The notes under the pieces: model-generated
Told to the model about the DNA's origin: nothing
Databases searched by the model: none
The model's input: the letters and a program-made list of their open reading frames with translations, nothing else
Shown: one piece after another, positions 11,208-18,857 of the stretch
Position numbering within the stretch: position 1 is the stretch's first letter
How the letters are laid out: each line of letters begins with the position of its first letter
NCBI GenBank assembly: GCA_028692515.1
Contig: JAQUXG010000003.1
Span: 1 to 18,857 of the forward strand
Source of the DNA: Kiritimatiellales bacterium
GTDB taxonomy: Bacteria; Verrucomicrobiota; Kiritimatiellia; Kiritimatiellales; Tichowtungiaceae
DNA: 18,857 nucleotides
Reading direction: 5' to 3'
Made by a program: the position numbers and the translations under genes

Positions 11208-11855
11208 ATGGAAGCGATCATCCTCCTCGGTGGACCGGGAGCAGGCAAAGGAACGCTGGCTGAAGTTCTCAAAAAGCAGACCGATTATCTCCACGTCTCC
11301 ACCGGCGACATGCTGCGGGCCGCCACTCAGGCCGGAACATCTGTCGGGACGGAAGCCAAAAGCTACATGGACTCCGGGCAGCTGGTTCCGGACGCCGTCA
11401 TCCTGCGCATCATCGAAGAGCGCATCTCTGAAGAAAATTCAAACTCTCATTTCATGTTCGACGGCTTTCCGCGCACCATCGAACAGGCCGAAGGGCTCGA
11501 CCGGTTTTTCAAAAAACAGGGCGGAGCCATCAACCACGTATTCAATCTGGTCGTAGACCGCGAAGCGTTGCTGGCGCGCCTGACCGGCCGCCGCGTCTGC
11601 AGAAGTTGCGGTGCGGTCTATCACATGGCCAACAAGCCGCCGAAAAAATCCGGCATCTGCGATATCGATGGCGGCGAGCTCTACCAGCGCGCCGACGACA
11701 GCGAAGCAACCATTTTAAACCGCCTTGAAGTCTATAAAAAACAGACGGCGCCGCTCATCGCGTTCTATCAGCAGAAAGGCCTGCTTCGCGAAATTAACGC
11801 CGGGGGAAGCCCTGCGGAAACCCAGACGCTCGTCCTCAACGTCCTCAACGCGTAA
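11208..11855 (+). CDS. adk: Adenylate kinase, zinc-LID type
   Basis: This enzyme interconverts ATP plus AMP and two ADP in the cytoplasm. The 215-residue long-form product has the P-loop GGPGAGKGT (residues 8-16), the AMP-binding segment STGDMLRAA and the FDGFPRT motif. The LID carries C131-x2-C134 and C151-x2-D154, the Cys3-Asp metal site known from Bacillus subtilis adenylate kinase, so zinc is probably bound. It starts 2 nt after secY, as in the secY-adk-map order of many bacteria, and is probably co-translated. Confidence 0.97.
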   Translation: MEAIILLGGPGAGKGTLAEVLKKQTDYLHVSTGDMLRAATQAGTSVGTEAKSYMDSGQLVPDAVILRIIEERISEENSNSHFMFDGFPRTIEQAEGLDRFFKKQGGAINHVFNLVVDREALLARLTGRRVCRSCGAVYHMANKPPKKSGICDIDGGELYQRADDSEATILNRLEVYKKQTAPLIAFYQQKGLLREINAGGSPAETQTLVLNVLNA

Positions 11856-11864
11856 GGCCTTCCC

Positions 11865-12608
11865 ATGATTGTCATCAAAACGCCCTCCGAACTCGACGCC
11901 ATGCGTCGGGTCAACCGCATTACCGCCCGCATCCGCGACGAACTCGCCGCACTCGTTCGCCCCGGCATCACCACGCTCGACCTCGGCAACGCCGCCGGCG
12001 AACTCATCCGCAAAGCGGGCGGCGTCAGCGCCTTCTACGGCTATCACGGCTTTGCCGGCCAGATCTGCGTCTCCGTCAACGACGAAGTCGTCCACGGCAT
12101 TCCCGGCCCGCGCGTCATCCAGAACGGCGACATCGTCAGCATCGACACCGGTGTTTGTTACGAAGGATTTATCGGCGACACCGCCATCACCGTCGCCGCC
12201 GGCGAAATCAGCGACGAAAACAAGCGTCTGCTCGAAGTCACCAAAGCCTCGCTTGCCGCCGGTGTTGCCAAAGCCGTCGTCGGCAACCGGCTCGGCGACA
12301 TCTCGCACGCCATCCAAACCGTCGTTGAAGCAGCAGGATTTTCCATCGTCCGCGAATTTGTCGGACACGGCATCGGCCGCGACCTGCACGAAGACCCGCA
12401 GATTCCAAACTTTGGAAAACCCGGCCGCGGACCCGTCCTCAAAGCCGGCATGACACTCGCCATCGAACCCATGGTCAACATTGGCGGAGCGAAAGTCGAA
12501 ATTCTCGAAGACAAATGGACCGTCGTCACCAAAGACGGAAGCTGTTCCGCGCACTTCGAACACACCGTCGCCGTCGGCCTCAAACCCGAAATCCTCACGC
12601 TCCCCTGA
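11865..12608 (+). CDS. map: Methionine aminopeptidase, type I
   Basis: This enzyme removes the initiator methionine from new proteins. The 247-residue product shows the full set of metal ligands of the pita-bread fold: D94 and D105 (SIDTG and GDTAIT), H168 (GHGIGRDLHEDP), E201 (AIEPM) and E232 (HFEHT). It lacks an N-terminal zinc-finger linker, so it is the short type Ia form. It lies 9 nt after adk and is the last gene of the operon; infA and rpmJ, often next, are not present. The segment coding IPNFGK carries one copy of the window's palindromic repeat, with A/T-ending codons in a gene otherwise rich in C-ending codons. Confidence 0.97.
   Translation: MIVIKTPSELDAMRRVNRITARIRDELAALVRPGITTLDLGNAAGELIRKAGGVSAFYGYHGFAGQICVSVNDEVVHGIPGPRVIQNGDIVSIDTGVCYEGFIGDTAITVAAGEISDENKRLLEVTKASLAAGVAKAVVGNRLGDISHAIQTVVEAAGFSIVREFVGHGIGRDLHEDPQIPNFGKPGRGPVLKAGMTLAIEPMVNIGGAKVEILEDKWTVVTKDGSCSAHFEHTVAVGLKPEILTLP
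12403..12417. repeat. TTCCAA-N3-TTGGAA palindrome inside map
   Basis: The 15-mer TTCCAAACTTTGGAA has both six-base half-sites intact. It encodes part of IPNFGK, a stretch that is often conserved in methionine aminopeptidases, so this copy could be a coincidence of protein sequence. Its register (CCA-N3-NTT-GGA) is the same as in the copy inside the DUF4139 gene. Confidence 0.55.
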
Positions 12609-12615
12609 TTTTTCT

Positions 12616-12632
12616 TCGGCTCATCGAGCCGA
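12616..12632 (+). terminator. Candidate terminator hairpin after map
   Basis: TCGGCTC and GAGCCGA form a perfect 7-bp stem with a 3-nt loop, 8 nt after the map stop. The following bases (CTTTACAT) are only modestly T-rich, so the intrinsic terminator is weak. Its position at the end of the 23-gene operon, facing a convergent gene, supports a role in ending transcription. The rest of the 12609-12765 gap holds the palindrome at 12679, a six-base inverted repeat (TCGTCG 12716-12721, CGACGA 12730-12735) and a decayed palindrome half-site at 12752-12757. Confidence 0.45.
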
Positions 12633-12678
12633 CTTTACATCACGCAGCGAAGGGTATGTTGGTTCTACGAACCCGTCT

Positions 12679-12699
12679 TTTTTCCAAACCTTGGAAAAA
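12679..12699. repeat. TTCCAA-N3-TTGGAA palindrome, T/A-flanked copy
   Basis: The core 15-mer TTCCAAACCTTGGAA (12682-12696) is flanked by three T and three A residues, giving nine paired positions per arm. The whole 21-base unit is identical to the one at 17362-17382, next to the thyX stop. It sits between the convergent ends of map and the DUF4139 gene. Confidence 0.85.
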
Positions 12700-12765
12700 G
12701 TTGAGGCGCCAAGTCTCGTCGGTTTCATTCGACGAAGTGAAGCGGCAATCCTTGGAAACCTTTGT

Positions 12766-14211
12766 CTACCAGCTGTAGTGCACCGTGTAGGTGATGACCT
12801 TTTCTTCGCCGGGCTGGAGCGTTACGCGGAATTCCATGGTGTCGGAACTGGTCTTATTCTGAAGATCGGAGCTGGCGGAAATGTTCCAGGTGAGGGCGCG
12901 GTAGAGGTGCTCAACCACGCGGATTTCAGCGGCATCTTTTTCTTTGCGGTTGCGCACCTTGATCTCGAAAGATTCGTCGATCCAGTTTTTCGAGGTGTCG
13001 ATCTGGTAGTCGGTGCGGGTGCGTTCGCCGACGAGGTCGAAGGCGTTGCCGGTAAAGAGGCGGACGGTTTCATCCTTCGGAGTGTGGTCGATCAGGTTCT
13101 CGCCGGTGAATTCGAGCTGTCCGTCGGTATCGCGGCGGTAGAAGCGCGCCCGGCCTTTGGGCAGGGGAATGCCGAGGCCGTTTTCCTTGGTGTTTTTGAA
13201 TTCGCGCATAACCCACACCTTCGGATTGCATTGGGTTCCATAGTCGCGTTCCTGACGAATGTTAGCCCAGTTCCAGCCTCGGTAGCGGTTTGGATCGATC
13301 TGTAGTCCGTCATAGATGTAGACCGTTTGGCTTTCCACGTTCGCCGCGCGCAAAAATTCGACCTGCTTGGTTTCGCGGTCGCGCAGGGTGGTGGTGCGTC
13401 CCAGCGCGTAGAGGTGGTATTCGTCGAAGGCCTTTTCCGATACGGCAGGCTCTTCGCGATCTGCATAGCTGCTGGCGGCTTTCATTAACCTGCGTGGACT
13501 ATTGCCGTTGGGTTTAATTTTTTCGACATCGCCCGCCATGAGTTTGATCTTGGCGTTTTCGAATGTGCGGCCGCTCTGGTTATTCATCGTCACCCAGCCG
13601 ATCACGTCGACGGTGTCGCCTTTTTCGGGAGCAACGATGTTGTAGTCGGCCTCCCAGCTCATTCCGCCGGAGACATAGCAGAGTTCGGCATCTGTCTTCC
13701 CTTCGCGGTCGCTATGCAAAAGCCAGTTAAAGGTGGGCTTGAGAATCGAGTCGTTTCCAAGGGTTGGAAAAATCGGCTGCCCCGGCAGGCTGAAGCGCAA
13801 TTGACCGTCCACCTCGATGATGGGTTCTTCTTGAGGAATGGGATCTGGATATCGAGAGACGGCATGTCCGCCACGGATGATCTTTCCTTTAATGAGATTG
13901 GTTTCGGAAAGAAAATCAATCTCCCTTCCTTGAAAGTAGTTTAGCAACAGGTTTTGCGAGATGGGGTCGGCGCGGTAGTTCTGTTCGAGAATGCGCAGGG
14001 TGTTCTTTTGGGAAAGGGAGCGAAGGATCACGGAGTCGGGTTCGGCGTGCGCTGTGATTTCCGAGAAGGCAACCTGAGTTTCTCCTTTGTTGAGTTTCAG
14101 CTCAATCTGTTCGCGCACCACGGCGAAGTTCTGATTGTAGAGCGTGAGCGCGGTGTTTTGCGCGTGGCTGGCGGCGGCGGACAGGCAGACGAGTGTGATA
14201 ATCCTTTTCAT
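12766..14211 (-). CDS. Secreted DUF4139-domain protein
   Basis: The product is a DUF4139 family protein of unknown biochemical role. I chose the ATG at 14211 (481 residues) because GGGAGAATACC precedes it and a signal peptide follows at once (MKRIITLVCLSAAASHA, likely cut before Q18); a longer frame to 14310 adds an unsupported 33 residues. The family core is visible as SYVSGGMSW-type sequence (CYVSGGMSWEADYNIVAP), NNQSGRTFENAKIKLMAGDV, the segment VEFLRAANVESQTVYIYDG, REFKNTKENGLGIPLPKGRA and the C-terminal RVTLQPGEEKVITYTVHYSW. It lacks the coiled-coil N-terminal domain seen in many relatives. It is the last gene of the sigma/vWA cluster, 113 nt after the vWA stop, so it is probably exported and works at the envelope with that protein (inference). 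Residues 147-153 (IFPTLGN) are coded by a copy of the palindromic repeat. Confidence 0.85.
   Translation of the reverse strand: MKRIITLVCLSAAASHAQNTALTLYNQNFAVVREQIELKLNKGETQVAFSEITAHAEPDSVILRSLSQKNTLRILEQNYRADPISQNLLLNYFQGREIDFLSETNLIKGKIIRGGHAVSRYPDPIPQEEPIIEVDGQLRFSLPGQPIFPTLGNDSILKPTFNWLLHSDREGKTDAELCYVSGGMSWEADYNIVAPEKGDTVDVIGWVTMNNQSGRTFENAKIKLMAGDVEKIKPNGNSPRRLMKAASSYADREEPAVSEKAFDEYHLYALGRTTTLRDRETKQVEFLRAANVESQTVYIYDGLQIDPNRYRGWNWANIRQERDYGTQCNPKVWVMREFKNTKENGLGIPLPKGRARFYRRDTDGQLEFTGENLIDHTPKDETVRLFTGNAFDLVGERTRTDYQIDTSKNWIDESFEIKVRNRKEKDAAEIRVVEHLYRALTWNISASSDLQNKTSSDTMEFRVTLQPGEEKVITYTVHYSW
13755..13769. repeat. TTCCAA-N3-TTGGAA palindrome inside the DUF4139 gene
   Basis: The 15-mer TTCCAAGGGTTGGAA has both half-sites intact and lies within coding sequence. 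On the minus strand it gives codons for F-P-T-L-G-N at residues 148-153. The reading register is the same as for the map copy. Confidence 0.8.
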
Positions 14212-14274
14212 GGTATTCTCCCGGTTCGGTTTGAATGTGTACGTTAAGATTAAAAAGAATGTGAACAAGAGTAT

Positions 14275-14319
14275 TTCCAAACATTGGAAGCCGGTGAAGT
14301 CTGATTCCAATGTTTGGAA
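14275..14319. repeat. Facing pair of palindromes between vWA and DUF4139 genes
   Basis: TTCCAAACATTGGAA (14275-14289) and TTCCAATGTTTGGAA (14305-14319) are each near-palindromes and are exact reverse complements of each other, separated by 15 nt. Together they can form a 15-bp hairpin with a 15-nt loop. On the transcribed minus strand the structure starts 5 nt after the vWA stop, followed by ATACTCTTGTTC, which is not a clear U-tract. It may act in transcript processing, stability or partial termination. The rest of the 14212-14324 gap shows nothing else clear. Confidence 0.85.
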
Positions 14320-14324
14320 GCTCT

Positions 14325-16532
14325 TTATTCAGGAATCGGAACCAGCAGTTTGGTTCCCTGTTTGATCTGCCGGGTATCTGTGATTTTGTTCAGGCGAATG
14401 ATTTCTGCTTCGGTGCATCCGTACTGCCGGGCTATGTCCCAGATCGTTTCGCCGGGATAGACGATGTGTTCATACACCGGAACGTCCGGTTCTTGCGCAG
14501 GGGTCGGCGTCAGAAGCGTGCCGGCCTTGCGGACGAGGTCGATGAATTCGCGACGGTAGCCGAACTCATCGTTTCCTTGTGAGCGGGCGGCCCATTCGAG
14601 TACCTGCTCGCAGGTGAGGGTGCCTTTGTAGTCCGAGTCGCGCAGCAGCATGCCGAACCCCGCCACGGCGGTTGCGAAGCGGAAGTCGGGACTGGTTTCA
14701 CTGAATGAACGGGCGGTGTCCATCAGCGGGAATTCCAACTTGGCGCTGATATCTCCGTCCGGTTCTTTGTACCGCAGCTTAACGGTCAGCAATTCGCCGG
14801 AGTTTCCGGCGAGCGCATCGCTCGCGGTGGGTTGATATTTCAGATCATCAATGTCCGGCGTGTTGTTGACCGGCTGACCCGCCGGAATAATTTCATAAAG
14901 CGCGGTGACGGTGTGACCCGCACCGATTTCGCCGGCGTCTTTTTTGTCGTCGTTGAAATCTTCGGTGGCCAGCATGCGGTTTTCATAACCGATCAGCCGG
15001 TAGCCCGCGACGCGCGCCGGATTGAATTCAACCTGAATTTTCACGTCTTTGGCGATGGTCACCAGCGTGCCGCTCATCTGATCGACCAGCACTTTGCGGG
15101 CTTCGTTGAAGGTATCGATATAGGCATAGTTTCCGTTGCCGCGGTCGGCCAGCTGTTCCATGGTGGAATCCTTGGTGTTGCCGGTTCCGAAACCGAGTAC
15201 GCTCAGGAAGATGCCGCTCTTGGCTTTTTCTTCAATCAGACGGTTCAGGTCGCCGCCCTGCGTGACGCCGATGTTGAAATCGCCGTCGGTGCAGAGGATG
15301 ACCCGGTTAACCCCATCTTTATTGAAGTTTTCCAGCGCGGTGCTGTAGGCCAGTTGAATGCCCTGACCACCGTTGGTTCCGCCGCCTGCTTTCAGTCGCT
15401 TGAGGGCTGCAATGATCGTGCGGCTGTTGGCGCCGGAGGTCGGCGGCAAAACGAGGCCGGATGATCCAGCATAGACGACGATGGCTACATGATCACGTTT
15501 GTCCAGCTGCTGAGCAAGCATCGTCATGGCACGTTGTACCAGCGGCAGCTTATTTTCCTGATTCATGGAGCCGGAGACATCCAGCAGGAAAACCAGATTC
15601 AGCGGCGGGCGGGCGGCCTGTTCGATCACGCGGCCTTTCAGTCCGATCCGCACCAGCTTGTGTTCTTCGTTCCACGGACATCTGGAAAGTTCCATATGGG
15701 TTGCGAACGGCACGTTGCCGCGCGGTGGGGCGTAGTTATAGTCGAAGTAGTTGATCATCTCTTCAATGCGCACTGCGTCTTTTGGCGGCAGACGGCCTTC
15801 ATTGAGGAAGCGGCGCACGTTGGCGTACGACGCCGTATCCACATCAATCGAGAAGGTGGAGAGCGGCTGGTCAGCCACGCGCAGGAATTTATTTTCCTGA
15901 ATCTCCGCATAGTCCTCAATGCTCGGGCCCCACTGATTTGCAACGAGCCCCTCGGCATCGCCGAGCATCACTCCAGAACCGACGTTTTCTGCGACGAATC
16001 CTTGGGCTATTCCTGCGGACCCAAACACTTCTATTTCAGGCAGACTCTGTTGTGTTCTGGAAATGATTCTCTGCGTCGAGCCAGCCACAGCATTTTTTTT
16101 CATCTTCACCCGGGGCTTCTGGAGATCCGTTTTTTGTCTCGAGAAGACGGGGCTCGGTGGGCAGAAGGCGACTTCTCTTTTCTCAACTGTGGAAAAAATG
16201 ACGATGCTTCCGGAAAGCATCAGCAGAATTCCGCCGATCGATGCGGCAACGGCTATCGGAATCCAGGGTTTACGCGGGAAGGGGATGATCTTTTCTTTCC
16301 GGTTTTTGCGCGCGGCCTGGCGGATGGTTTCGTGCTGTTCTTCGGTCAGAACCATTTGGGCTTCGGCGGCGTAGTGATCTTTGATTTTTCCGGCCAATTT
16401 GCGGATTTCTTCAACCGCTTGGCGGGCTTCCGGGTTGGTTTCGAGTTCTTTTTCAAACGCGGTGCGTTCAGCTTCGGGCAGTTCGCCCAGAGCGTAGGCG
16501 GTCAGTTTTGGATCATTTCTTTCAAATTTCAT
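14325..16532 (-). CDS. YfbK-like vWA membrane protein with anti-sigma-like N-terminus and LysM
   Basis: This 735-residue protein appears to join four modules. Residues 1-80 are cytosolic and helical (LTAYALGELPEAERTAFEKE, ETNPEARQAV), like the N-termini of anti-sigma factors. One hydrophobic helix lies at about 90-114. The YfbK-type N-terminal domain (FSIDVDTASYANVRRFLNEG) is near 205-295. The vWA domain at about 310-485 has a complete MIDAS: D318-x-S320-x-S322, T386 and D416. The YfbK C-terminal region spans about 505-670, and a LysM motif lies at 688-732 (YPGETIWDIARQYGCTEAEI, LNKITDTRQIKQGTKLLVPI). The ATG follows AAGGAGA, which overlaps the stop of the sigma gene 11 nt upstream, so the two are co-translated. 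The predicted topology puts vWA and LysM outside the inner membrane, with LysM able to bind peptidoglycan. The anti-sigma role is inference. Confidence 0.9.
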   Translation of the reverse strand: MKFERNDPKLTAYALGELPEAERTAFEKELETNPEARQAVEEIRKLAGKIKDHYAAEAQMVLTEEQHETIRQAARKNRKEKIIPFPRKPWIPIAVAASIGGILLMLSGSIVIFSTVEKREVAFCPPSPVFSRQKTDLQKPRVKMKKNAVAGSTQRIISRTQQSLPEIEVFGSAGIAQGFVAENVGSGVMLGDAEGLVANQWGPSIEDYAEIQENKFLRVADQPLSTFSIDVDTASYANVRRFLNEGRLPPKDAVRIEEMINYFDYNYAPPRGNVPFATHMELSRCPWNEEHKLVRIGLKGRVIEQAARPPLNLVFLLDVSGSMNQENKLPLVQRAMTMLAQQLDKRDHVAIVVYAGSSGLVLPPTSGANSRTIIAALKRLKAGGGTNGGQGIQLAYSTALENFNKDGVNRVILCTDGDFNIGVTQGGDLNRLIEEKAKSGIFLSVLGFGTGNTKDSTMEQLADRGNGNYAYIDTFNEARKVLVDQMSGTLVTIAKDVKIQVEFNPARVAGYRLIGYENRMLATEDFNDDKKDAGEIGAGHTVTALYEIIPAGQPVNNTPDIDDLKYQPTASDALAGNSGELLTVKLRYKEPDGDISAKLEFPLMDTARSFSETSPDFRFATAVAGFGMLLRDSDYKGTLTCEQVLEWAARSQGNDEFGYRREFIDLVRKAGTLLTPTPAQEPDVPVYEHIVYPGETIWDIARQYGCTEAEIIRLNKITDTRQIKQGTKLLVPIPE

Positions 16533-16543
16533 GGCAAATCTCC

Positions 16544-17041
16544 TTACAGGTTAATCATCTGTTCGCGCAGGGTTTTAATGCCGGTATGCAGCAGAAAGCC
16601 CACATTGCTTTCGCTGAGTTGCGTGCAGTGGGCGATTTCGCGGTAGCTCAGGTTTTGCTGAAATTTCAGCCGGATGACTTCCCGCTGATTTTTCGGAAGT
16701 TTGGAGAGAAATCGGGGGAGCAGGCGGCTGAGATCGCCTTGCGCGGCCTGTTCGTCCGGGGATTTTTCTTCAGAAGCGATCGAGGCTTCCTGCGGCTCGC
16801 TCATCGACTGAACGGGATTTTCTTTGCGCAGAATATCGAGTGACCGGTTGCGACAGACCCGAAACAGCCAAGGCGCTTCGCGGTCTTTCAGCTTTTCCGG
16901 TTTTTGACCGCAGAGACGCAGGAACGTATCCTGTACGGCGTCGCGCGCCCATTCCAGATTTCGCAGCAGGCTGAACGCGTAGCTGCATAGAGGGCGTTCG
17001 TAGCGCCTGACCAGCGAGGTGATCCACGTCTCTTTGTCCAT
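16544..17041 (-). CDS. ECF-type RNA polymerase sigma factor
   Basis: This is a 165-residue sigma-70 family factor with only regions 2 and 4, the ECF layout. Region 2 covers about residues 12-77 (SLLRNLEWARDAVQDTFLRL, then APWLFRVCRNRSLDILRKE). An acidic linker SPDEQAAQGD follows. Region 4 covers about 105-160 (LPKNQREVIRLKFQQNLSYR, EIAHCTQLSESNVGFLLHTG), including the helix-turn-helix that reads the -35 element. The ATG follows AAAGGAAG. The stop is 11 nt before the vWA/anti-sigma-like gene and shares bases with its ribosome binding site, the usual sigma/anti-sigma layout. It may direct transcription of its own cluster. The exact ECF group cannot be assigned by eye. Confidence 0.93.
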   Translation of the reverse strand: MDKETWITSLVRRYERPLCSYAFSLLRNLEWARDAVQDTFLRLCGQKPEKLKDREAPWLFRVCRNRSLDILRKENPVQSMSEPQEASIASEEKSPDEQAAQGDLSRLLPRFLSKLPKNQREVIRLKFQQNLSYREIAHCTQLSESNVGFLLHTGIKTLREQMINL

Positions 17042-17066
17042 AACTTCCTTTCGGGTTGTTTCCCTG

Positions 17067-17082
17067 ACCTGCGTCGGCAGGT
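17067..17082 (-). other. Hairpin in the sigma-factor leader
   Basis: ACCTGC and GCAGGT form a perfect 6-bp stem with a 4-nt loop, 26 nt before the sigma ATG on the minus strand. It would lie in the 5' untranslated region and could tune translation or mRNA stability. No partner or family is recognised. Confidence 0.4.
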
Positions 17083-17121
17083 TTCACAGAGGTTAACGGG
17101 CGAGACGGAGAGTCCTTAGAA

Positions 17122-17151
17122 AATAAATGAAAAAAGTTTATCGCAATGCAA
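17122..17151 (-). promoter_or_regulatory. Possible promoter of the sigma-vWA-DUF4139 cluster
   Basis: On the minus strand TTGCAT (17151-17146) and TTTATT (17127-17122) are separated by 18 nt inside an A/T-rich island (about 17112-17155), about 80 nt before the sigma ATG. The match to sigma-70 boxes is only moderate, and an ECF-type promoter used by the adjacent sigma factor is equally possible. The rest of the gene-free stretch 17042-17382 consists of the hairpin at 17067 and the repeats listed below. Confidence 0.25.
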
Positions 17152-17208
17152 ATCTTCGGTGCGGCTTCTGAAAATCCGTTTCCTCACACCTGCGCAAGTG
17201 CGGGGAAA

Positions 17209-17223
17209 TTCCAAGGATTGGAA
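17209..17223. repeat. TTCCAA-N3-TTGGAA palindrome
   Basis: TTCCAAGGATTGGAA has both half-sites intact and marks the left end of the palindrome cluster that fills the space between the sigma gene and thyX. Confidence 0.85.
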
Positions 17224-17234
17224 AAAAATCTATA

Positions 17235-17251
17235 AACCGGCCGCGCCGGTT
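17235..17251. repeat. G+C-rich hairpin
   Basis: AACCGGC (17235-17241) and GCCGGTT (17245-17251) form a perfect 7-bp stem around a 3-nt loop (CGC). It lies 11 nt after a TTCCAA palindrome and overlaps by two bases the next, altered copy. Confidence 0.7.
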
Positions 17252-17264
17252 CCAATGTATGAAA
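17250..17264. repeat. Altered TTCCAA palindrome copy
   Basis: TTCCAATGTATGAAA keeps one half-site fully and four of six bases in the other. It differs at two positions from the intact unit at 14305-14319, so it looks like a decayed copy. Confidence 0.5.
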
Positions 17265-17270
17265 CTGTAG

Positions 17271-17289
17271 CCGCGTCCCGCGGGCGCGG
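17271..17289. repeat. G+C-rich hairpin
   Basis: CCGCGTCC (17271-17278) and GGGCGCGG (17282-17289) form an 8-bp stem with one T-G pair and a 3-nt loop. It is the second of three G+C hairpins interleaved with TTCCAA elements. Confidence 0.6.
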
Positions 17290-17291
17290 TT

Positions 17292-17327
17292 TTCCAATGG
17301 CGCATTTTGCGCCACAAGTGTTTGGAA
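17292..17327. repeat. Split TTCCAA...TTGGAA unit with a nested hairpin
   Basis: The half-sites TTCCAA (17292-17297) and TTGGAA (17322-17327) are held apart by 24 nt instead of 3. The gap starts with a perfect hairpin, TGGCGCA and TGCGCCA around TTT (17298-17314). It looks like a palindrome into which a second hairpin was inserted, or a longer composite element. Confidence 0.6.
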
Positions 17328-17331
17328 CTTT

Positions 17332-17359
17332 TGACCCCTGACGCCTGCTTCCTGACCCC
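17332..17359. repeat. Four tandem 7-bp units (TGACCCC type)
   Basis: Four contiguous heptamers are TGACCCC, TGACGCC, TGCTTCC and TGACCCC. The first and last are identical and the middle ones differ at one and three positions. On either strand any coding frame here gives low-complexity sequence, so it is not a gene. It sits between the composite palindrome and the thyX end. Confidence 0.75.
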
Positions 17360-17361
17360 GG

Positions 17362-17382
17362 TTTTTCCAAACCTTGGAAAAA
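17362..17382. repeat. TTCCAA-N3-TTGGAA palindrome at the thyX stop
   Basis: The core TTCCAAACCTTGGAA (17365-17379), with T3 and A3 flanks, is identical over 21 bases to the copy at 12679-12699. It abuts the thyX stop codon directly. On the thyX strand it forms a 9-bp A/T-rich stem but no U-tract follows, so it is not a standard intrinsic terminator. Confidence 0.85.
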
Positions 17383-18237
17383 CTATTCAGCCGGTTTTTC
17401 GAAGAGGGAGAGGTTGCCTTTGAGCTTGTCTTCGAATTCGGCCTTGCGGCGCTCGTCGAGCGGATTTTCTTTTCCGGCGAGCAGGGCGTTGATGGCGGCA
17501 ATTTCGTCGCTGGAGAATTTCGCGCCGCGCAGGATGTGCCGTTCGAAGGATTCGTAGACCAGCGGACAGGTCGCTTTGACGATCTGCGCAATGGCGCGGG
17601 CGTATTCCTGAATTTCCCACTGGGCGTGGCTGTCCATGCGCAGCTTCAAAAAGTGCAGCATGTTTTTGAGATCCATCTGCCAGTACCACTCGGTGTACAT
17701 GGAGAGCGGCAGGTTGATGCGCGCGAGTTCGCGGGCGATGCCGTCATTTAAAATTTCGCTGTAGTTGGCGTAGCTGGCGGACTGATCCTGTTTGAGCAGT
17801 TCGAGCACTTTATCCTGCAGCTCGACCGGGACGGCTTCTTTGTCGCGACCCTGTTTGTTGTCGACGCTTTGCAGGCTGATCTGTTCGCGCGGCGGCAGGT
17901 AGAATTCGTCTTTCATGACGCTGTAGCGGCCGGAAATTTCGTTGAGGCGCGCGGTGCGGTGGCGGATCCACTGGCGGGCGACGAAGATCGGCATTTTGCA
18001 GTGGAATTCAAAGATGACGTGTTCGAAGGGGGAGGTGTGTTCGTGGCGCAGGAGGTAGTCGATCAGCCCGGCATCCTGACGGATGGTTTTTGTGCCTTCG
18101 CCGTAGGAGACGCGCGCGGTCTGCACGATGCGTGCGTCGCCGCCCATGTAGTCGACGAGACGGACGAAGCCGTGGTCGAGAACTTTGATTTCCTGATCAA
18201 GCAGTTTTTCAGCTTCCGGAACGATGATGTGCGCCAT
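17383..18237 (-). CDS. thyX: Flavin-dependent thymidylate synthase
   Basis: ThyX makes dTMP from dUMP with FAD, NADPH and methylene-tetrahydrofolate, independent of ThyA. I chose the ATG at 18237 (284 residues) because a strong GGAGGT site lies 7 nt before it; a longer frame to 18297 runs through repeat-like DNA. The family signature RHR-x7-S is present as R92-H93-R94 and S102 (RHRTARLNEISGRYS). Further landmarks are RHEHTSPFEH (residues 64-73), VARQWIRHR and the C-terminal MDLKNMLHFLKLRMDSHAQW. It appears to be a single-gene unit, with an A/T-rich palindrome at its stop and a shared upstream region with the + strand gene at the right edge. Confidence 0.96.
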   Translation of the reverse strand: MAHIIVPEAEKLLDQEIKVLDHGFVRLVDYMGGDARIVQTARVSYGEGTKTIRQDAGLIDYLLRHEHTSPFEHVIFEFHCKMPIFVARQWIRHRTARLNEISGRYSVMKDEFYLPPREQISLQSVDNKQGRDKEAVPVELQDKVLELLKQDQSASYANYSEILNDGIARELARINLPLSMYTEWYWQMDLKNMLHFLKLRMDSHAQWEIQEYARAIAQIVKATCPLVYESFERHILRGAKFSSDEIAAINALLAGKENPLDERRKAEFEDKLKGNLSLFEKPAE

Positions 18238-18250
18238 GAATAACCTCCGT

Positions 18251-18294
18251 GGAATATTGGAAGGCTGGATGATGGAGTATTGGGAATGGTGATT
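18251..18294. repeat. Degenerate 6-8 bp tandem repeat in the thyX leader
   Basis: On the + strand the segment divides into units that each start with GG: GGAATATT, GGAAGGCT, GGATGAT, GGAGTATT, GGGAAT and GGTGATT. They are similar but not identical, and unit length drifts between 6 and 8. The stretch is open in the thyX frame but is unlikely to be coding, because the strong ribosome binding site lies after it. Confidence 0.45.
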
Positions 18295-18304
18295 CAAATC
18301 ATTT

Positions 18305-18325
18305 GGAATATAAGGTTGATATTCC
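18305..18325. promoter_or_regulatory. Inverted repeat in the thyX/aldolase divergent region
   Basis: GGAATAT and ATATTCC form a perfect 7-bp inverted repeat with a 7-nt spacer, extendable by one T-G and two T-A pairs. On the minus strand TATATT (18312-18307) inside it could be a -10 box for thyX. On the + strand TTGATA (18316-18321) could be a -35 box with TCATAA 18 nt further. An operator or a leader hairpin are both possible. Confidence 0.35.
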
Positions 18326-18334
18326 GAAGCTAAG

Positions 18335-18385
18335 GCGCATCATAAGCGCATCACATTAACAAAAAGTTGTTCATAACGGTGATGC
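18335..18385 (+). repeat. Direct and inverted repeats before the integrase-like fragment
   Basis: GCGCATCA occurs at 18335-18342 and 18346-18353, one helical turn apart. GCATCAC (18348-18354) is complementary to GTGATGC (18379-18385), with AACAA/TTGTT (18358-18362 and 18367-18371) nested between. This could be a folded leader, a regulator site, or a remnant recombination site given the integrase-like sequence that follows. Confidence 0.35.
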
Positions 18386-18388
18386 ACT

Positions 18389-18577
18389 ATGGGTACATTT
18401 GAAGGCACAGGGATAAAAAATCTGAAGCTGCGCGGCGGGATCTACTACTGGCGGCAGAAGATCGGCGGCGTTCAGTATTCTGAGTCGCTTCAGACCGGTG
18501 AACGCGCCGAAGCGCTTCGGCGGATGGATGAAAAGGTGAAGGCCGCGAAGAGCGGAGAAATTTTAAAGGAAAAACCC
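18389..18577 (+). pseudogene. Orphan N-terminal fragment of a tyrosine recombinase
   Basis: An ATG at 18389 opens 63 codons reading GTGIKNLKLRGGIYYWRQKI, then GGVQYSESLQTGERAEALRR and MDEKVKAAKSGEI. The pattern R-G-G-I-Y-Y-W-R with a basic, beta-strand-rich stretch, then SL-x-T-x-x-R-x-E-A, is that of the arm-type DNA-binding start of phage-like integrases. No core-binding or catalytic domain follows. Instead the frame continues without a stop into the aldolase gene. It is most likely a remnant of an integrase, or a domain captured by the aldolase; the identification is from pattern only. Confidence 0.55.
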
Positions 18578-18857
18578 ATGACCAAGATCAAAGATATCAG
18601 CGAAGAGTCGGTGAATTTCTGGCCGCAACTTAAAGTGCTCGACTGCACCATCCGTGACGGCGGGCTGATGAATAACCATCAGTTCAGCGACGAATTTGTG
18701 CATGGCATACACAAGGCGCTGGTCGCCGGTGGCGTGGACTACATGGAAATCGGCTATAAGGCCGATAAAAAACTTTTCAGTCCCAGTGAGTATGGTGCAT
18801 GGAAGTCCTGCACAGAAGATTCATTGAACGGCTTTTTCGGCGATGAAGATCCCGGAG
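18578..18857 (+). CDS. Aldolase of the DRE-TIM/HMGL-like family (3' end outside window)
   Basis: The first 93 residues of a TIM-barrel aldolase or lyase are visible. The motif LKVLDCTIRDGG (residues 18-29) is the strand-1 Arg-Asp signature of the HMG-CoA lyase/4-hydroxy-2-oxovalerate aldolase superfamily, and VDYMEIGYKADKKLFSPSEY fits the second strand region. The ATG at 18578 follows AAAGGA (18565-18570) with 7 nt spacing and is the likely start, although the frame is open back to 18389 through an integrase-like fragment. Substrate cannot be told from this part. The gene runs off the window, so operon partners are unknown. Confidence 0.8.
   Translation, partial: MTKIKDISEESVNFWPQLKVLDCTIRDGGLMNNHQFSDEFVHGIHKALVAGGVDYMEIGYKADKKLFSPSEYGAWKSCTEDSLNGFFGDEDPG

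What the first reader, a model, noticed from the sequence alone, without database searches (positions are those of the whole stretch)
12403..17379. A clustered family of TTCCAA-N3-TTGGAA palindromes
Seven exact copies (12403, 12682, 13755, 14275, 14305, 17209, 17365) and two altered or split copies (17250, 17292) lie within 5 kb. Twelve fixed bases are expected by chance about once per 16.8 million positions at even base composition. I saw no copy in the ribosomal genes before map. The central three bases vary (ACT, ACC, GGG, ACA, TGT, GGA), so selection or copying acts on the half-sites. It could be a regulator operator, a nucleoid or restriction-related site, or a dispersed short palindromic repeat.
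Basis: seen in the sequence. Interest (0 to 1): 0.75.

Follow-up and report, generated by a model that had tools for sequence, protein, structure and literature searches.

The report
Class-wide phased palindrome arrays in Kiritimatiellia

Summary
TTCCAA-N3-TTGGAA occurs 7 times exactly in the window and 609 times in its 1.81-Mb draft genome, where about 0.2 are expected. In the class Kiritimatiellia 48 of 146 sampled genomes carry 10 or more copies, up to 3,044; none of 159 sampled genomes of other classes of the phylum has more than 4. The gap is 3 and the middle base is nearly always G/C. Neighbouring copies lie whole helical turns apart, mostly two or three (period 10.45 bp, 119 distances). 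Arrays are about 16-fold denser between genes than in genes, whatever the gene orientation. Half-sites show almost no compensatory changes; 9 of 9 alignable sites differ from a relative by substitution, without indels. Best reading: cooperative binding sites of an unidentified dimeric, architectural or global DNA-binding protein. IS200/RAYT, IclR and AbrB families do not track the sites. An Lrp-family protein is present in all 48 site-bearing genomes, but its DNA-reading helix is not conserved. I found no published description in the library searched.

The parts
12403..12417 (.). exact site, centre ACT, inside map (codes the IPNFGK stretch)
   Evidence: map = Peptidase_M24; also an exact site in relative G007
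12682..12696 (.). exact site, centre ACC, in the gap between convergent genes map and the DUF4139 gene
13755..13769 (.). exact site, centre GGG, inside the DUF4139 gene
14275..14289 (.). exact site, centre ACA, first of a pair 30 bp apart, between the vWA gene and the DUF4139 gene
14305..14319 (.). exact site, centre TGT, second of the pair; its end and the end of the vWA gene (14325) differ by 6 in coordinate
17209..17223 (.). exact site, centre GGA, between the ECF sigma gene and thyX
17250..17264 (.). altered copy, 2 mismatches, 41 bp (four turns) from 17209
17292..17327 (.). split copy: half-sites 17292-17297 and 17322-17327, with a short inverted repeat between them; starts 42 bp from 17250
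17365..17379 (.). exact site, centre ACC; its end and the end of thyX (17383) differ by 4 in coordinate
   Evidence: no site at this place in the relatives read

Best explanation
The palindromes are binding sites of a dimeric, sequence-specific double-strand DNA-binding protein. Dimers sit side by side on one face of the helix, mostly two or three turns apart, sometimes four, and probably interact, bending or wrapping the DNA. Sites arise and decay in place by point mutation and are kept by selection at many interchangeable, mostly intergenic places. The protein therefore acts genome-wide (architectural, nucleoid-like or global regulatory) rather than as a switch for a few promoters. Shown: geometry, phasing, intergenic placement, turnover, patchy class-wide distribution. 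Inferred: that a protein reads the sites, that it is a dimer and cooperative, and that the role is architectural. The protein is not identified; of four families tested only Lrp/AsnC fits the presence pattern, and its recognition helix argues against it.
For: Gap 3: 56 copies at gap 3 and 0 at gaps 0-2 and 4-12 in 117,649 bp of own contigs (most of these contigs were chosen because one search listed sites in them). Half-sites are hardly in excess outside full sites: 56 TTCCAA and 35 TTGGAA there, about 42 TTCCAA expected. Helical phasing: vector strength 0.90 at 10.5 bp, best period 10.45, 119 neighbour distances of 100 bp or less; significant in each of the 7 groups with such distances, related arrays not being independent. 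Mismatch spectrum 200 exact / 74 one-mismatch (1.7 expected) / 28 two-mismatch (19.3 expected); core CC least variable; only 2 compensated double changes (loci chosen for exact sites). Without that bias, the whole own genome has 609 exact and 299 one-mismatch copies, 19 for the reversed control. Middle base G/C in 83 of 87 in the own genus. Arrays per kb: tandem gaps 0.79, convergent 0.92, divergent 0.88, inside genes 0.05. No indel, only substitution or identity, at 9 of 9 alignable sites. Strict grammar in 7 of 7 f27 arrays of four or more sites.
Against: No cognate protein found. The site beside thyX is not conserved in position among congeners, unusual for ordinary operators. Some arrays are segmental copies of each other. 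Decay ratios differ greatly between close relatives, so maintenance is not universal. 32 of 121 arrays or single sites lie in genes. No binding data exist.
Confidence: 0.55

Rival explanations
1. The reader of the sites is the conserved Lrp/AsnC (feast/famine) protein of these bacteria, wrapping DNA as Ss-LrpB does.
For: Lrp-family operators have the same architecture: 15-bp palindrome TTGCAAAATTTGCAA for Ss-LrpB (passages of PMC4046817) and sites two or three turns apart on one face, with DNA wrapping (passages of PMC2995911). PF01037 is present in 48 of 48 genomes with 10 or more sites; the 23 genomes without it (20 listed, 3 deduced by elimination) have 2 sites or fewer, Fisher 5e-5 without correction for kinship. 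Best solved relative is PH1519, the protein of DNA complex 2e1c.
Against: 75 of 123 Lrp-bearing genomes have fewer than 10 sites. The recognition helix varies among 35 site-rich genomes and no single residue separates them from 20 site-poor ones. Only 2 of 60 Lrp loci show exact sites within 200 bp upstream of the gene. Lrp sites have an AT-rich centre; here the middle base is G/C.
Confidence: 0.15
2. A self or uptake mark with molecular drive, like uptake sequences: DNA that carries sites is taken up, protected or licensed preferentially, so sites spread by recombination and decay when the machinery is lost.
For: Turnover of position, excess of perfect copies, decay in some sister species, lineage dialects in the centre, arrays in viral contigs and, in site-poor genomes, beside genes that look like mobile defence genes.
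Against: Known uptake sequences are not palindromic and not phased in arrays (recalled). No competence or degradation machinery was tested.
Confidence: 0.15
3. REP/BIME-like dispersed palindromes copied by a RAYT (Y1) transposase.
For: Intergenic; 26% of 77 distances to gene 3-prime ends lie under 11 bp, 10% expected; regular spacing; some arrays are segmental copies.
Against: 5 of 48 genomes with ten or more sites lack any Y1 match, while several genomes with no site have 10-17. Half-sites fixed while most spacers differ. No indel at 9 of 9 alignable sites (only 2 intergenic).
Confidence: 0.1
4. RNA hairpins or transcription terminators.
For: Each site can fold as a short hairpin; often just past stop codons.
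Against: No U-run follows (flanks are T before, A after). About as dense in divergent gaps. Arms hardly covary. Spacing follows the DNA helix. No Rfam match in 11500-18857.
Confidence: 0.05

Closest known systems
Operator arrays of Lrp/AsnC (feast/famine) proteins, e.g. Ss-LrpB, FL11
   Same: 15-bp palindrome with outer TT and inner AA; sites two or three turns apart on one face; arrays
   Different: hundreds to thousands of near-perfect copies per genome, G/C at the centre, some four-turn spacings, cognate protein not shown
REP/BIME elements with RAYT transposases
   Same: intergenic palindromes, hundreds of copies, regular arrays, close to stop codons
   Different: no transposase link, almost no arm covariation, substitution in place, symmetric site without fixed flanks
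DNA uptake sequences (Pasteurellaceae, Neisseriaceae; features recalled)
   Same: short, hundreds of copies, mostly perfect, fast turnover, dialects
   Different: palindromic, helically phased arrays, strongly intergenic
IclR-family operators
   Same: tandem palindromes at 2, less often 3-4 turns; group-1 motif has a related half-site (PMC8222616 passages)
   Different: centre W3-4 there, G/C middle base here; family not found in the window's own genome
HIP1 of cyanobacteria (recalled)
   Same: genome-wide over-represented palindrome in one clade
   Different: 15 bp with a gap, strongly intergenic, phased arrays

Membership tests
REP/BIME-RAYT | RAYT/Y1 transposase co-occurs | tested here: not met
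   5 of 48 genomes with 10 or more sites lack a PF01797 match; several genomes with 0 sites have 10-17 matches
REP/BIME-RAYT | element arrives as an inserted copy | tested here: inconclusive
   no indel at 9 of 9 alignable sites, but only 2 are intergenic; a few segmental array copies exist
REP/BIME-RAYT | arms keep pairing by compensatory change | tested here: not met
   74 single mismatches; doubles at mirrored places: 2 compensated, 2 not
Lrp/AsnC operator array | about 15-bp palindrome, sites 2-3 turns apart on one face | tested here: met
   architecture as in passages
Lrp/AsnC operator array | AT-rich centre | tested here: not met
   middle base G/C in 83 of 87
Lrp/AsnC operator array | cognate Lrp present with a conserved DNA-reading helix | tested here: not met
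   present in 48 of 48 but helix variable
Lrp/AsnC operator array | protein binds the site | not testable with these tools
   needs binding assay
IclR operator | IclR protein in the genome | tested here: not met
   PF01614 has no match in G000 (86% complete draft) and in 36 of 48 genomes with 10 or more sites
AbrB-type sites | AbrB/SpoVT-fold protein in the genome | tested here: not met
   PF04014 no match in G009 (one contig, 567 sites), G020 (640), G057 (111); G000 itself has one match
Intrinsic terminator | hairpin followed by U-run, at gene 3-prime ends | tested here: not met
   A-rich side follows; similar density in divergent gaps
DNA uptake sequence | preferential uptake of DNA with the site | not testable with these tools
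   competence genes not searched

The most novel reading that the evidence does not exclude
Kiritimatiellia use an undescribed genome-wide address code: a fast-turning-over, in-place-evolving 15-bp palindrome, read by an unknown protein that polymerises along one face of the DNA in helically phased arrays with defined ends (22-31n-30-22 in one family). Mu-like phage contigs carry the arrays too, and mobile islands seem to bear them into other genomes, so the code may mark or package self DNA rather than regulate single genes.
Probability: 0.3. Interest if true: 0.88.

Novelty: new variant of a known kind. Interest (0 to 1): 0.72.

Why it matters
A class of little-studied bacteria carries an unusually strict short genome-wide DNA element with a readable physical grammar (fixed gap, G/C centre, whole-turn spacing, array ends) and natural on/off contrasts between sister lineages. 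Finding its reader would expose a new architectural or marking system and give a clean model for how genome-wide binding sites are gained and lost.

Tried and rejected
RAYT/Y1 transposase, IclR and AbrB as cognate families: presence does not track sites. Lrp/AsnC: presence fits, but the recognition helix neither is conserved among site-rich genomes nor separates them from site-poor ones; kept as a rival only. Of 60 Lrp loci, three (G003, G005, G112) were dropped because my script had picked a neighbouring open frame, and two (G118, G085) because their counts lie between the two classes.

Ancestral regulon from site-poor genomes: leftover single sites often have an A/T middle base or seem to lie in genes (chance). 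Phased pairs were found in 6 of the 19 site-poor genomes; I looked at five and they lie beside defence-type genes by my reading of the open frames, with no common regulator. RNA hairpin/terminator: almost no covariation, no U-run, no Rfam match. Insertion: one search shows substitution, with the limit that intergenic DNA rarely aligns at 82% identity. My gene calls are a home-made hexamer caller and crude ORF picking. Many stretches were chosen because a listing showed sites in them, so densities per bp in them are not genome averages. Chromosome-wide distribution in a complete relative (G009) could not be examined.

Papers: (site strings) found 0 papers; some searches were seen as listings with starts of abstracts; passages were read from PMC8222616, PMC2995911 and PMC4046817. 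No paper was read whole.
Full report
WHAT IS THERE. The window is one contig (C9) of an 86%-complete, 288-contig draft genome with 609 exact copies and none of the reversed control pattern; 0.07-0.20 copies are expected by composition. The nearest named relatives by the map gene are mostly labelled Pontiellaceae, Kiritimatiellales or Verrucomicrobia.

DISTRIBUTION. In the own genus 14 of 14 genomes have sites, 62 to 793 copies. In a sample of 146 genomes of the class, 77 have at least one and 48 have ten or more (my count from the table), the maximum being 3,044 in G140. Among 159 genomes of other classes of the phylum (hand count) the maximum is 4. Within the class the pattern is patchy even inside families: f27 has 459 and 411 in genus g47 but 0 in the four sampled g51 genomes; f14 ranges from 0 to 3,044. 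The named isolates Pontiella sulfatireligans and Pontiellaceae B12227 have 376 and 1,132.

ANATOMY OF ONE SITE. In 117,649 bp of own contigs, most of them chosen because one search listed sites there, 56 sites have gap 3 and none has gaps 0-2 or 4-12. Over all loci then held, gap 3 occurs 160 times and each other gap from 0 to 24 at most 3 times. Outside full sites the half-sites occur 56 (TTCCAA) and 35 times (TTGGAA); about 42 TTCCAA are expected. The middle base is C or G in 56 of 56 own copies, and in 49 of 51 (f8), 32 of 33 (G140) and 20 of 20 (f27) copies elsewhere, and in 83 of 87 in the own genus. Centre triplets are lineage-specific: GCC 36 of 51 in f8; TCA 29 of 33 in G140. Outside the site T is favoured before (75% at the first place) and A after, fading within 3-4 bp.

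MISMATCH SPECTRUM. Over the fetched loci of seven sets there are 200 exact, 74 one-mismatch (1.7 expected) and 28 two-mismatch copies (19.3 expected). Changes avoid the CC core (8 of 74) and concentrate on the inner A (30 of 74, 28 of them A to G). At mirrored places 2 double changes restore pairing and 2 do not. Those loci were chosen for exact sites; over the whole own genome the figures are 609 exact and 299 one-mismatch, with 19 for the reversed control at up to one mismatch. This is the signature of a sequence read in double-stranded DNA rather than of a hairpin.

ARRAYS AND PHASE. Neighbours within 100 bp lie at 21-22, 30-33, 62-64, 73 or 85 bp, and once at 41 bp in the viral set. The vector strength at 10.5 bp is 0.90 over 119 distances, best period 10.45 bp; phasing is significant against evenly spread distances in each of the seven groups that have such distances, though related arrays within a group are not independent. 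Adding copies with up to two mismatches, the own genus shows 22, 30-32 and 41-42 bp, i.e. two, three and four turns. In the window 14275/14305 are 30 bp apart, and 17209, 17250 and 17292 are 41 and 42 bp apart. In family f27, 7 of 7 arrays with four or more sites start and end with a 21- or 22-bp step and have exactly one 30-bp step, next to one end; the other inner steps are 31 bp. Read in one orientation the first centre is CCA in 6 of 7 and the last but one is CCA in 7 of 7; spacers share an A-tract/CCG/A-tract composition and a few are identical. These arrays come from two genomes of one genus and may be partly related by copying.

PLACEMENT. With a home-made gene caller over 769,391 bp of fetched loci, arrays or single sites occur at 0.79, 0.92 and 0.88 per kb in tandem, convergent and divergent gaps and 0.05 per kb in genes (78 in gaps, 32 in genes, 11 at contig ends or unplaced). 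26% of 77 distances to gene 3-prime ends are under 11 bp (10% expected); under 4% of 79 distances to gene starts are (11% expected). So the sites look neither promoter- nor terminator-specific.

EVOLUTION. The site just past thyX in the window has no counterpart there in the relatives read; G011 has one-mismatch copies 48 and 90 bp past its stop (one search placed the stop in only 2 of 8 loci, the rest is read from site positions). Own contigs were aligned to 792,251 bp of relative G007 (82% identity). Nine of 58 own sites examined could be aligned: three are exact in both, the others carry 1-5 substitutions in G007, and none has an indel inside the site. Seven of the nine are in genes and two intergenic, so insertion in intergenic DNA is not excluded. 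The ratio of one-mismatch to exact copies runs from 0.22 (G057) and 0.49 (G000) to 2.85 (G007), 3.4 (G005) and 5.7 (G034): sites are kept clean in some lineages and decayed in close relatives. Some whole arrays are segmental copies (L116/L117; L196).

WHO READS THEM? Four families were searched in the same 146 genomes. Y1/RAYT is missing in 5 of 48 genomes with ten or more sites, and several genomes without sites have 10-17. IclR is missing in the own genome and in 36 of 48. AbrB-type is missing in G009 (one contig, 567 sites), G020 and G057. Lrp/AsnC is present in 48 of 48, while the 23 genomes without it (20 listed, 3 deduced by elimination) have 2 sites or fewer (Fisher 5e-5 without correction for kinship). 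Lrp-family operators are the closest architectural match: TTGCAAAATTTGCAA for Ss-LrpB (passages of PMC4046817) and sites two or three helical turns apart on one face, with wrapping (passages of PMC2995911). But 75 Lrp-bearing genomes have fewer than ten sites, the recognition helix varies among 35 site-rich genomes and no single residue separates them from 20 site-poor ones, only 2 of 60 Lrp loci show exact sites within 200 bp upstream of the gene (three of the 60 with the wrong frame), and Lrp sites have AT-rich centres. I therefore do not assign the sites to it. LacI, GntR, MarR, HU, ParB and other families were not tested.

MOBILE DNA. A phased-pair pattern found 4 stretches in 3 viral contigs. 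Two of these contigs match a phage transposase family, one of them also portal and major head proteins, the other a terminase small subunit ('Mu-like' is my reading), with arrays mostly in gaps. Of 19 genomes with 2-13 sites, six hold a phased pair; in the five looked at, the pair lies near genes that I read from their open frames, without a family search, as restriction-modification, RhuM/Fic-like or PIN-like. This fits arrival with foreign DNA from site-rich donors.

VERDICT. The finding is real, class-wide and geometrically strict. The most economical mechanism is cooperative binding of a dimeric protein along one face of the DNA, with a genome-wide rather than promoter-specific role. The reader of the site is unknown. 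I found no published account and 69 of an open-access library; most subscription papers are not covered.

Noticed in passing
L022:3088, L026:3094, L027:3075, L308:1501, L310:1501: A site with centre GCA sits at the same place in a ribosomal-protein gene gap (rplX-rplE by my reading) in five loci of family f2, including genomes with only 4 and 7 sites in all.
   Followed up: partly
L303, L304, L314, L315, L134: In site-poor genomes phased pairs lie beside genes that look like mobile defence or toxin-antitoxin genes (PIN, RhuM/Fic-like, restriction-modification), as if imported from site-rich donors.
   Followed up: partly
L361, L362, L363, L364: Phased arrays occur in three viral contigs, two of them with phage transposase matches, in places next to small helix-turn-helix or terminase-like genes.
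   Followed up: partly
window 17292-17327: A copy split by a short insert that holds the inverted repeat TGGCGCA-TTT-TGCGCCA.
   Followed up: no
window 14325-17041: An ECF-type sigma gene followed by a gene for a YfbK/vWA/LysM protein whose first residues look like an anti-sigma domain by eye.
   Followed up: no
L116, L117 (G057): Two arrays share spacers and about 30 bp of flank, next to other intergenic repeat-like text rich in CGCAAAG and CCGTG words.
   Followed up: no
G007 and G000: Congeners with thyX 95% identical differ nearly 9-fold in exact sites (71 and 609) and in decay ratio, a ready natural contrast for finding the protein.
   Followed up: partly
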